From Oribacterium sp. WCC10 (GTDB lineage: Bacteria; Bacillota; Clostridia; Lachnospirales; Lachnospiraceae), in contig NZ_FOPH01000005.1 of NCBI RefSeq assembly GCF_900113415.1, positions 62,001 through 126,000 on the forward strand: 64,000 nt of DNA, in the 5' to 3' direction. Every line of letters begins with the position of its first letter. The stretch's first letter is position 1. The position numbers and the translations under genes are program-made. The notes beneath the pieces were generated by a model, which saw only the letters and a list, made by a program, of their open reading frames with translations, was not told the origin of the DNA and made no database searches. Below, in pieces: positions 11,435 through 41,081 of this stretch.

Positions 11435-11583
11435 GCAAGTGGCGCGCACCGGCCCACTCGATTGAAAGAACAAACTTTCTTCCATAGTTCGTACTGTTCG
11501 CACTAAAGTGCGTACTGTACGAACATGTCAGTCAGTCTGTTCTTTCAACTCGCAAGCCTTGGCGCACATCCCCTTGCTTTTTT
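11435..11583 (+). terminator. Very long multi-stem hairpin ending in a T-run
   Basis: Nested stems are GCAAG/CTTGC (outer), GGCGC/GCGC, TTGAAAGAACA/TGTTCTTTCAA, and an inner GTTCGTACTGT..GTACGAAC arm around GTGCG, separated by asymmetric internal loops. TTTTTT follows at 11578-11583. It ends the cyclase gene and can serve as terminator, but at ~145 nt it is far longer than needed. Confidence 0.55.
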
Positions 11584-11644: not shown

Positions 11645-11872
11645 GGATAACGCCGATGGCATCCTTTTATAAAACGTTAGCTGAGGACACGAAAAATCAT
11701 AATAGAACCCCTTAGATAAATTTAGTGAATTTTCCTTGACACCCTCGTCAATGCCGGAGTTTTCATCAGGAAAACCCGGCAATTGGCGAGGGCTTAATTT
11801 ATCTTAGGGGTTCTGTTATAGATTTTTCTTCCGCAAGCTTCCCGTTTTTTAAAGGATGCCTCTGGCGCTATC
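11645..11872 (+). ncRNA. ~225-nt multi-stem hairpin element, copy A
   Basis: Outer stem (GATA, CGCC, GGCATCCTTT pairing with AAAGGATGCC, GGCG, TATC), then a conserved asymmetric loop containing GCTGAGGAC..GAAAAAT opposite CCGCAAGC..CCCG, then a middle stem GAACCCCTTAGATAAATT/AATTTATCTTAGGGGTTC, a one-sided bulge TTTTCCTTGACA, an inner stem CCCTCG/CGAGGG and a terminal hairpin GTTTTC-ATCAG-GAAAAC. Copies B and C keep the same layout with different stem sequences. It lies between convergent genes. Whether it acts as RNA or as a DNA element is unknown; strand is given by alignment with copy C. Confidence 0.6.
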
Positions 11873-15442: not shown

Positions 15443-15626
15443 CCGTAGGTTTCATACGGAACCTGCAAAACAGCAAACCTGCCGAAGGAGTAAAACTCTC
15501 AGGAGTCTGTAAAGACGGAGACTAATAACGGAGTGAACTCTGGAGAAACTCTTTAAAGAGTGCCGAAGGTGCAAAGGCACAGGACTTGTTCCTGCCCCAA
15601 TCTCTCAGGCAAAAGGACAGAGATAT
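15443..15626 (+). promoter_or_regulatory. Tandem glycine riboswitch
   Basis: Two aptamers in a row: the first contains CTGCCGAAGGAGTAAAACTC and AAGACGGAGAC, the second GTGCCGAAGGTGCAAAGGC and AAAAGGACAGAG. The linker between them is short (~5-7 nt). These are the diagnostic glycine-binding cores. The next gene downstream on the same strand is an AGCS alanine/glycine:cation symporter, a known partner of this class. About 410 nt separate the second aptamer from the start codon and no clear terminator or ribosome-site sequestering hairpin was identified by eye. Confidence 0.93.
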
Positions 15627-15676
15627 TCAATGATGTAAAAACTGATCGTATTTGAATTTTATGATACAGCATATCA

Positions 15677-16038: not shown

Positions 16039-17436
16039 ATGATGGACGCACTTAACAACATCGTATCGATTCTGGATGACAAAGTATGGTTTATCCTTCT
16101 TTTTCTGCTTGTAGGAAGCGGAGTTTATTTTTCCATCCGTACTAATTTCGTTCAGATTCGCAGATTTCCGCATGCGTGGAACAGAGTATTCGGAAATTTT
16201 TCCATGAAGGGTGAAGCTTCCGGAAATGACGGAATGAGTTCTTTCCAGGCACTTGCTACAGCAATCGCCGCTCAGGTAGGTACCGGTAATATCGCAGGTT
16301 GCGCAACAGCACTTGTTGGCGGTGGTCCGGGCGCAATCTTCTGGATGTGGGTTGCAGCATTCTTCGGCATGGCTACAATTTACGGCGAGGCTGTTCTTGC
16401 TCAGAAAACCAAAACCAAGGACGAGCACGGTGAAGTTATCGGCGGTCCGGTCTACTACATTACCAAAGCATTCACAGGCGGGTTCGGAAAGTTCCTTGCA
16501 GGATTCTTTGCCGTTATGATCATTCTTTCACTCGGCATCATGGGAAACATGGTTCAGTCAAACTCCATCAGTGATGCATTTTTCAATGCTTTCGGCGCGC
16601 CAAAGTGGATCATCGGTGTGTTTGTGGCTATCGTTTCTGCATTTATCTTCGTTGGCGGAATCGGTCGTATCGCTTCTTTCACTGAGAAGGTTGTTCCATT
16701 CATGGCAGGTCTTTACATTATTGCAGCAATCGTGATCATTGCCATCAATCATGCCAATATCATCCCCGCTGTGGTTTCTATCTTCACCGGAGCATTTACT
16801 CCACAGGCTGTTGCAGGTGCAGGCACAGGTATCACAGTACGTCAGGCACTCCGTCTCGGTGTTGCCCGTGGTCTTTTCTCCAACGAAGCAGGTATGGGTT
16901 CAACTCCTCACGCACATGCTCTCGCCAAAGTAAAGAATCCTCAGGAGCAGGGTGAGGTCGCTATGGTAGGTGTATTCGTAGATACTTTCATCGTACTTAC
17001 ACTTACAGCTCTTGTAATCCTCTCATCAGGCGTTCTCGGTTCATCAGTACCTTATGCAGGTGAGATCACCGGTACTCCAGTCGCACAGCTTGCATTCTCA
17101 ACAGGTTTCGGCGGTTTCGGACCTATGTTCGTAGCCATCTGTCTTCTGTTCTTTGCATTCTCAACCATCATTGGATGGTTCCTTTTTGCAAGACAGAATG
17201 TGACATATCTCTTCGGAAAGAAAGCTGTTATTCCTTTCGCTGTTGTTGATGTGGTTTTCATTTTCATCGGATCACTTTTAAAGGTTGAATTCGTTTGGAA
17301 CCTTCAGGATCTTTTCAACGGAGTCATGGTTATCCCTAACCTTCTCGCACTTATCGTTCTTTCAGGTGCGGTTGCGACACTGTCTCACGGAAAAGACGTG
17401 GATCTTGATTCAAAGGAAGAGCGTAAAAGCGCTTAA
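16039..17436 (+). CDS. AGCS-family alanine/glycine:cation symporter
   Basis: 465 aa, ~11 hydrophobic segments. Family signatures: GTGNIAGCATAL near residue 80, a Gly-rich GGPGAIFWMW, and ARGLFSNEAGMGSTPHAHA, the conserved AGCS stretch. It imports small neutral amino acids with Na+ or H+. AAAGGGGAG lies 7-8 nt before the ATG at 16039 (a second ATG at 16042 is equally possible). Its position behind a tandem glycine riboswitch indicates that glycine is the main regulated substrate. A strong terminator follows. Confidence 0.93.
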   Translation: MMDALNNIVSILDDKVWFILLFLLVGSGVYFSIRTNFVQIRRFPHAWNRVFGNFSMKGEASGNDGMSSFQALATAIAAQVGTGNIAGCATALVGGGPGAIFWMWVAAFFGMATIYGEAVLAQKTKTKDEHGEVIGGPVYYITKAFTGGFGKFLAGFFAVMIILSLGIMGNMVQSNSISDAFFNAFGAPKWIIGVFVAIVSAFIFVGGIGRIASFTEKVVPFMAGLYIIAAIVIIAINHANIIPAVVSIFTGAFTPQAVAGAGTGITVRQALRLGVARGLFSNEAGMGSTPHAHALAKVKNPQEQGEVAMVGVFVDTFIVLTLTALVILSSGVLGSSVPYAGEITGTPVAQLAFSTGFGGFGPMFVAICLLFFAFSTIIGWFLFARQNVTYLFGKKAVIPFAVVDVVFIFIGSLLKVEFVWNLQDLFNGVMVIPNLLALIVLSGAVATLSHGKDVDLDSKEERKSA

Positions 17437-17527: not shown

Positions 17528-17751
17528 CAAAAGCCGGTGTCCATCCGTTAAAAAGCGGGGCGCTTGTGGCGGAAAAATTAAAAATTGAACCCTAAGAGGC
17601 AGTAGGCCCTCGCCAATATTTGAGTTTTCCCGATGAAAACTCAAACTTGTCGAGGGTGTCAAGGTAAATTACACCAACTGCCTCTAAGGGTTCGATTTAT
17701 ATTTTTCACGTCCTCAGCTTAACGCTTTTAAACAGACGGACACCGGCTTTG
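17528..17751 (-). ncRNA. ~225-nt multi-stem hairpin element, copy B
   Basis: Same layout as copies A and C but in the opposite orientation. Outer stem AAGCCGGTGTCC/GGACACCGGCTT, middle stem GAACCCTTAGAGGCAGT/ACTGCCTCTAAGGGTTC (one unpaired base), inner CCCTCG/CGAGGG, terminal GAGTTTTC-ATCGG-GAAAACTC. The internal loops GCTGAGGAC..GAAAAAT and CCTTGACACCCTCG match copy A almost exactly. It lies between convergent genes. Confidence 0.6.
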
Positions 17752-40857: not shown

Positions 40858-41081
40858 CAGAGCCGGAGGGTATCTGTTGAAATGCGTAGAGGCGAGGTGT
40901 GAAAAAATCAAAATCGGACCTCTTAGTGGCAGTTGGTTTTCTTTTCCTTAGCCCCCTCGCCAAGTTTTAGTTTTCATCAGGAAAACTAAAACATTGGCGA
41001 GGGCCTACTGCCACTTAGAGGTCCGATTATAGATTTTTCCGCCGAGGCGACCCGTATTTCAACAGATACCCTCCGGCTCTG
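40858..41081 (+). ncRNA. ~225-nt multi-stem hairpin element, copy C
   Basis: Best outer stem of the three: 22 perfect pairs from CAGAGCCGGAGGG through TATCTGTTG with its complement at 41054-41081. Middle stem CGGACCTCTTAGTGGCAGT/ACTGCCACTTAGAGGTCCG, bulge TTTTCCTTAGCC, inner CCCTCGCC/GGCGAGGG, terminal TTTTAGTTTTC-ATCAG-GAAAACTAAAA. It lies between two minus-strand genes, upstream of the kinase and downstream of the AraR-like gene. The remaining part of 40578-40857 shows no gene. Confidence 0.6.

What the first reader, a model, noticed from the sequence alone, without database searches (positions are those of the whole stretch)
11645..11872. Family of ~225-nt multi-stem hairpins with compensatory changes (three copies)
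Copies at 11645-11872, 17528-17751 (reverse) and 40858-41081 share the loops GCTGAGGAC..GAAAAAT (altered in C), CCTTGACACCCTCG-like bulge and GTTTTC-ATCAG-GAAAAC tip, while outer and middle stems differ yet stay paired (GATAAATT/AATTTATC, GAGGCAGT/ACTGCCTC, GTGGCAGT/ACTGCCAC). That pattern suggests selection on structure, not a recent simple repeat. All lie between genes, and lengths agree within 4 nt. It may be a small RNA, or a single-strand DNA element. It may belong to a known long-stem RNA such as the skipping-rope family; I cannot confirm this.
Basis: seen in the sequence. Interest (0 to 1): 0.8.

Follow-up and report, generated by a model that had tools for sequence, protein, structure and literature searches.

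The report
Long-hairpin jumping DNA in Oribacterium
The three matching hairpins belong to a family of short, non-coding mobile DNA elements scattered through rumen Oribacterium genomes; they resemble an RNA gene because their two arms change together, but the evidence points to DNA that once jumped and is later re-copied between sites.

Summary
In detail: the window holds three diverged copies of one hairpin family (fold z -13 to -18). In 34 copies, 54 of 68 pairs show changes on both sides. The family is dispersed: 26 loci in fetched parts of the own genome, matches in 10 of 17 same-genus genomes and in 1 of 200 sampled family genomes, the own one. No Rfam family reaches its threshold.

The RNA reading is not favoured. 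Non-Watson-Crick stem cells are A·C nearly as often as G·U (142 to 186), against 6 to 156 in RNase P of the genus. Copies lie in both orientations, close behind genes.

A minority of copies reach about 282 nt with ends GTAACAGTTCAGC...GCTGAACTGTTAC, and some have exact 8-bp target duplications, one in the own genome at a site unoccupied in five relatives. This is a long-hairpin MITE. In 6 of 10 orthologous pairs the interior is closer to paralogs than to the ortholog. The transposase is unidentified (IS66-like is a guess), and most copies, A-C included, have no recognisable ends.

The parts
11645..11872 (+). Copy A: paired part of the hairpin element
   Evidence: Fold z -13.2; family model, core 11683-11835, 155.0 bits
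17528..17751 (-). Copy B: paired part of the hairpin element
   Evidence: Fold z -13.8; family model, core 17565-17715, 150.2 bits
40858..41081 (+). Copy C: paired part of the hairpin element
   Evidence: Fold z -18.1; family model, core 40894-41046, 169.5 bits
40901..40906 (+). Copy C: A-rich helix (5' side), nearly invariant in the family
   Evidence: Columns 50-54 of the alignment vary little
40924..40924 (+). Copy C: unpaired T in the middle of the 5' CTTAG, opposite the T of the 3' CTTAG
   Evidence: Fold; both CTTAG motifs recur across the family
40937..40953 (+). Copy C: 17-nt bulge on the 5' arm only
   Evidence: Fold; TTTTCCTTAG consensus in 34 copies
40954..40986 (+). Copy C: 5' side of the distal stem, tip loop ATCAG (40976-40980) and first tip-stem bases of the 3' arm
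   Evidence: Fold, alignment

Best explanation
The hairpins are diverged copies of a non-autonomous DNA transposon (a MITE) of the genus Oribacterium. The complete form is about 282 nt in most of the genomes studied, almost wholly one imperfect inverted repeat, with ends GTAACAGTTCAGC...GCTGAACTGTTAC. A transposase acting in trans (IS66-like by its end sequence and 8-bp duplication; not identified) inserted it with an 8-bp target duplication, and copies are found mostly behind genes. In most copies the outer ends are no longer recognisable. The interior stays base-paired through DNA processes: interiors appear to be replaced from other copies, and template switching between the two arms may add to this. 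Shown: the family, the shared ends and 8-bp duplications in a minority of copies, unoccupied sites for one copy, interiors closer to paralogs than to orthologs in 6 of 10 pairs, near-symmetric mismatches. Inferred: the transposase type, decay of the ends, and conversion or template switching as the mechanism.
For: Dispersed, diverged copies in one genus. Ends at constant offsets: 5' end in 21, 3' end in 13, both in 8 of 99 copies; reversed control 1 and 1. 8-bp duplications (at least 7 of 8) in 5 of 9 two-ended copies of G008 (permuted mean 0.55, max 4) and in 8 of 49 G008 copies regardless of ends (permuted 0.92, max 5). Own-genome copy L167:4335-4616 flanked by ACATTTTC on both sides; the orthologous gap in five relatives is 45-122 nt without the element. 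The same ends bound other non-coding repeats, 11 of 28 with 8-bp duplications (permuted 0.36). G·U 186 and A·C 142 in stems, against 156 and 6 in RNase P. Interiors closer to paralogs in 6 of 10 orthologous pairs. No long ORF: longest ATG-started (or M-containing) stretch median 18, maximum 46 residues in 86 copies.
Against: Most copies have no recognisable ends, A, B and C among them. The duplication test is negative or at chance in the other genomes: G000 1 of 25, G004 0 of 16, G014 1 of 25, G012 0 of 15; the five two-ended copies of G004, G012 and G014 have none. L167, the dissected copy, has poor ends (7 mismatches of 24, the most the rule allowed). No transposase carrying these ends was found. 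A slight excess of G·U remains (p 0.017), and the one-sided-change contrast with RNase P is weaker (150 to 107 against 18 to 5). The invariant bulge, loops and A-rich helix are not explained by arm homogenisation. In 4 of 10 orthologous pairs the ortholog is closest.
Confidence: 0.7

Rival explanations
1. A structured non-coding RNA gene family: the hairpin is transcribed and selected for its fold; its dispersal is secondary.
For: Strong covariation; stable folds; invariant unpaired pieces; slight G·U excess.
Against: G·U to A·C is 186 to 142 against 156 to 6 in RNase P; both orientations to neighbouring genes; patchy presence, 10 of 17 genomes; no Rfam family; transposon-like duplications in a subset.
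Confidence: 0.12
2. A REPIN-like single-strand DNA element moved by a Y1 (RAYT or IS200-type) transposase that recognises the folded hairpin.
For: Extragenic hairpins with compensatory changes are described for REPINs (PMC3116915, passages). GTAG occurs near the hairpin foot in part of the copies: 18 occurrences at offsets -42 to -36 among 58 copies of G004, G012, G014 and one uncultured record.
Against: No Y1 transposase in the own genome, though four F1-free or F1-rich relatives differ freely (6 of 10 genomes with the family have Y1, 3 of 7 without). The element's ends were not found in the flanks of the 30 Y1 loci fetched. 8-bp duplications are not expected of this mechanism (recalled).
Confidence: 0.08
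3. Not a mobile element: terminator hairpins that grew and were kept matched in place by template switching.
For: Copies lie behind genes; in one orthologous pair (L176/L131) the only two differences in 253 positions form one compensated A-T to T-A pair; template switching can restore stems (PMC8794818, abstract and passages).
Against: A specific shared 153-nt core at unrelated loci, shared ends and 8-bp duplications in some copies; homogenisation should erase the conserved bulge and loops.
Confidence: 0.05

Closest known systems
Bacterial MITEs
   Same: Short, non-coding, dispersed, terminal inverted repeats, target duplications in a subset of copies
   Different: Almost the whole length is one hairpin with invariant loops and covarying stems; no partner transposase identified
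IS66 family ends
   Same: Ends starting GTAA and 8-bp duplications; a passage of PMC11946415 gives 20-30-bp repeats starting GTAAGCG and 8-bp direct repeats for IS66
   Different: Fifth base onward differs (GTAACAG); no IS66 gene with these ends among 24 fetched IS66 loci (nothing with fewer than 3 mismatches of 13)
REPINs
   Same: Extragenic hairpins with compensatory changes, many copies (PMC3116915 passages)
   Different: About three times longer than typical REPINs (recalled), no Y1 transposase in the own genome, 8-bp duplications in some copies
Rfam RNA families, Clostridiales-1 in particular
   Same: Covarying structure; Clostridiales-1 is also multi-copy in this genus
   Different: No Rfam family reaches its threshold on copies of this family

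Membership tests
MITE | Short, non-coding, many dispersed copies | tested here: met
   26 loci in fetched parts of the own genome; longest M-started stretch median 18, maximum 46 residues in 86 copies
MITE | Terminal inverted repeats | tested here: met
   In a minority: 8 of 99 copies with both ends, 21 with the 5' and 13 with the 3' end; control 1 and 1. Not recognisable in A, B, C
MITE | Target-site duplication | tested here: met
   In a minority: 5 of 9 two-ended G008 copies and 1 of 10 elsewhere; at or near chance over all copies of G000, G004, G012, G014
MITE | Autonomous partner with the same ends | tested here: inconclusive
   Repeats with these ends break contigs of G004 about 300 nt inside, so their genes could not be read; one peptide from such an end had no Pfam match
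IS66-derived MITE | GTAA-starting ends and 8-bp duplications | tested here: met
   definition from a passage of PMC11946415
IS66-derived MITE | IS66 transposase gene bounded by these ends | tested here: inconclusive
   IS66 DDE matched in 8 of 10 genomes with the family (one below the cut-off) and 2 of 7 without; none of 24 fetched loci has the ends with fewer than 3 mismatches, but flanks were 1.5 kb at most
REPIN/RAYT | Y1 transposase (RAYT) in the genome | tested here: not met
   0 matches to PF01797 in the own genome; 9 of 17 in the genus
Structured RNA of Rfam | Match at a family's gathering score | tested here: not met
   Window and five loci, three of them with copies of this family
Structured RNA in general | Stem tolerates G·U but not A·C | tested here: not met
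   186 to 142 here, 156 to 6 in RNase P; weaker by one-sided changes, 150 to 107 against 18 to 5
Structured RNA in general | Discrete transcript | not testable with these tools
   No expression data

The most novel reading that the evidence does not exclude
The hairpin interior is a working part of the element and not just a pair of arms: the invariant A-rich helix, the CTTAG loops, the one-sided 17-nt bulge and the fixed tip form a single-stranded DNA (or RNA) docking structure used in its spread, and the element propagates partly by overwriting the interiors of resident hairpins, a conversion-like homing, besides inserting with 8-bp duplications.
Probability: 0.2. Interest if true: 0.75.

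Novelty: new variant of a known kind. Interest (0 to 1): 0.5.

Why it matters
Covariation is commonly taken as strong proof of a functional RNA fold. Here 54 of 68 pairs covary in what looks like a DNA element, whose mismatches are nearly strand-symmetric and whose interiors seem to be exchanged between loci, so covariation alone would have suggested a false RNA family. Comparing G·U with A·C counts is a cheap check that could be applied to other candidate RNAs. The family also offers insertions, stubs, nested copies and orthologous pairs in one genus, in which gene conversion and template switching in long palindromes could be measured.

Tried and rejected
Known RNA: Rfam at gathering and permissive thresholds; the weak matches (microRNA, snoRNA and a few bacterial models) are far below their cut-offs. 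A hammerhead-like CTGA..GAAA core was considered and rejected because CTGA is not conserved across the family (motif recalled). REP/RAYT: no Y1 gene in the own genome, and the ends were not found beside 30 fetched Y1 loci. IS66 partner: not confirmed; a 53-residue peptide from an end-bearing repeat matched no Pfam family. Phages and plasmids (copy C) and viral contigs (pattern): no matches. Hits of the pattern in Yanofskybacteria, Sutterella and one uncultured Clostridia record were not confirmed; the model confirmed 61 of 64 stretches. The BLAST survey and MAFFT junctions were too crude and were redone. L115, L105 and L092 were first taken for empty sites; they look like internal-deletion stubs or a plain terminator and are not counted. 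L150 against L173 and L154 against L208 are absences without a clean junction and are not counted either. Clostridiales-1 as a second RNA control gave G·U 37 and A·C 27, against my reading that true RNAs differ from this family; its alignment yielded only 26 pairs and the family is itself dispersed here, so I do not rest on it, but the G·U test has then one RNA control only. In one search the F1 label is a crude pattern and mislabels some rows; only the unlabelled group is quoted. Literature: no paper of the held library joins Oribacterium with 'intergenic repeat' or 'inverted repeat'; MITE searches with IS66 or Lachnospiraceae gave only listings, none on this family by title. Other papers were seen as listings only, or as passages (PMC2864571; PMC3116915; PMC11946415; PMC8794818, abstract and passages).

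Full report
WHAT IS THERE. The three copies are at the stated coordinates and fold far better than shuffles, z = -13.2, -13.8 and -18.1. A family model (R1, 153-position core, built from 34 copies) finds these three loci in the window and nothing else convincing. By the ORF list A and B lie between convergent genes and C between two minus-strand genes. The organism is an Oribacterium: a 22-base pattern from the bulge and distal stem hit 64 stretches of public genomes, chiefly Oribacterium sp. KHPX15 and NK2B42, an Oribacterium MAG (RUI013) and a Lachnospiraceae MAG (S9M_St_59); the model confirmed 61 of 64. By shared contig lengths these are handles G014, G004, G012 and G008. That they are rumen isolates is recalled, not from a call.

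DISTRIBUTION. The model matches 10 of 17 genomes of the genus, unevenly: 43 matches in G000, 32 in G004, 83 in G008, 40 in G012, 45 in G014 (both strands of one locus can count), one to five in G001, G010, G011, G015 and G016, none in seven. In the fetched parts of the own genome there are 26 loci, one of them weak. Of 200 genomes drawn from the family only the own one matched, with stricter filters. Blast of copy C against plasmid and phage records and the pattern against viral contigs gave nothing. Among 85 copies compared, the closest pair within a genome is 86-93% identical, so no recent burst is visible.

STRUCTURE. On 34 copies 92.4% of stem cells are standard pairs and 54 of 68 pairs have changes on both sides; none of 500 shuffles reaches either value. 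In 85 copies it is 66 of 69 pairs. Hypervariable but matched stems alternate with nearly invariant pieces: GAAAAAT/ATTTTTC, the CTTAG/CTTAG loop, a 17-nt one-sided bulge and the tip.

WHY NOT RNA. Selection on an RNA fold tolerates G·U but not A·C. In 85 copies (5,865 cells) G·U is 186 and A·C 142. RNase P from 15 genomes of the genus, handled the same way, gives 156 and 6 (Fisher p about 4e-23, though cells are not independent). Counting only one-sided departures the contrast is weaker: 150 to 107 against 18 to 5. A slight G·U excess remains (p 0.017). A second control, Clostridiales-1, gave 37 to 27 on a poor alignment, so the test rests on one RNA family. Of 98 copies with a neighbour on both sides, 25 lie between convergent genes, 7 between divergent genes and 66 in tandem, against 73, 79 and 384 of 536 intergenic gaps of at least 30 nt in the same loci; in tandem settings 25 read with and 41 against the genes; the median distance is 25 nt to a neighbour's 3' end and 108 nt to a 5' end (simple ORF calls).

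ENDS AND MOBILITY. Some copies have longer arms ending in GTAACAGTTCAGC...GCTGAACTGTTAC at constant offsets. Allowing three mismatches, 21 of 99 copies have the 5' end, 13 the 3' end and 8 both; the backward pattern occurs once on each side. With a looser rule 19 of 131 copies have both ends. In G008, 5 of 9 have a direct repeat of 8 bp agreeing at 7 or more positions (permuted mean 0.55, maximum 4 in 2,000), four of them exact; elsewhere 1 of 10. Regardless of ends: 8 of 49 in G008 (permuted 0.92, maximum 5), but 1 of 25, 0 of 16, 1 of 25 and 0 of 15 in G000, G004, G014 and G012. The five two-ended copies of G004, G012 and G014 have no duplication. Copy L167:4335-4616 of the own genome (282 nt, ends with 7 mismatches of 24) is flanked by ACATTTTC on both sides and interrupts what reads as an intrinsic terminator. 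The orthologous gap in G016, G011, G014, G015 and G008 is 122, 65, 62, 114 and 45 nt, with terminator-like hairpins and no element; in G010 (159 nt) and G004 (509 nt) it holds other sequence; four further genomes with partial matches were not examined. The same ends are common in G004 (104 sites), G014 (58) and G000 (11), against 0 to 1 per strand for the backward pattern. They bound other non-coding elements of 46 to 569 nt, 11 of 28 with 8-bp duplications (permuted 0.36, maximum 3).

WHAT MOVES IT. Ends starting GTAA with 8-bp duplications fit IS66 as described in a passage of PMC11946415. An IS66 DDE gene is matched in 8 of the 10 genomes with the family (G011 below the cut-off) and in 2 of the 7 without, a weak association among related genomes; the two exceptions, G010 and G012, are 73% and 77% complete. 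None of 24 fetched IS66 loci carries these ends with fewer than three mismatches. The assignment is a guess. Y1 transposases are absent from the own genome, present in 6 of 10 genomes with the family and 3 of 7 without, and the ends were not found beside 30 fetched Y1 loci.

HOW THE ARMS STAY MATCHED. In 6 of 10 orthologous pairs without the second element, the distal hairpin of both members is closer to a paralog in its own genome than to its ortholog, for example L205 to L089 0.99 against 0.85 to L177; in the other four the ortholog is closest. One copy (L181) serves in two of the pairs, and for two of the six (L160/L180, L158/L128) the outer stems agree at only 47-68%, so their orthology rests on the flanking genes. 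One pair (L176/L131) differs in 253 positions only by one compensated A-T to T-A pair. This fits replacement of interiors from other copies, and possibly template switching, which can restore stems (PMC8794818, abstract and passages only). Pure homogenisation should erase the conserved bulge and loops, so some constraint on the interior is likely; that is the room left for the novel reading.

LIFE HISTORY. Complete copies sit inside others at the mid-stem (L099, L186, L185 and its ortholog L203, L116). Stubs exist, one (L190) explained by deletion between the two CTTAG repeats. A second element of about 79 nt sits at the same place of the 3' arm in 12 copies seen, and at five orthologous loci one genome has it and another lacks it, which suggests repeated insertion at one position.

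VERDICT. A long-hairpin MITE family, new to the resources searched here, of a known kind with unusual structure. The RNA interpretation is unlikely but not excluded without expression data.

Noticed in passing
L113:1779-2011, L132:1725-1959, L136:1058-1292, L188:5042-5275, L092:7441-7674 and seven more copies: A second, three-stem element of about 79 nt is inserted at the same place of the hairpin's 3' arm in 12 copies; at five orthologous loci it is present in one genome and absent in another. Related sequence occurs at about 30 places of the own genome (33 matches).
   Followed up: partly
G000 genome (41 matches), G007 (65), L254:1359-1499: The Rfam RNA Clostridiales-1 (RF01699) is a high-copy dispersed repeat in part of this genus, in places in tandem, and nearly absent (0-3 matches) from the genomes richest in the hairpin family other than G000.
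   Followed up: partly
L288, L301, L411-L420, L424, L327-L334: Ends GTAACAGTTCAGCC...GGCTGAACTGTTAC bound other non-coding repeats of 46 to 569 nt, among them 61-nt mini hairpins; 11 of 28 have 8-bp duplications.
   Followed up: partly
L181:3258-4998 against L200:3325-4979: An inverted segment between two genomes ends close to a copy of the hairpin (core L181:5094-5248), as if copies could serve as recombination sites.
   Followed up: no
L099, L186, L185, L116: Copies nested in the mid-stem of another copy are bounded by direct (C)TTAG or (C)GTAG motifs.
   Followed up: no
window 11462-11548: Another inverted repeat (24-nt arms, 79% complementary) lies just beside copy A.
   Followed up: no
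window 15530-15630: Glycine riboswitch (RF00504) on the plus strand, ahead of the ORF 16039-17436.
   Followed up: no
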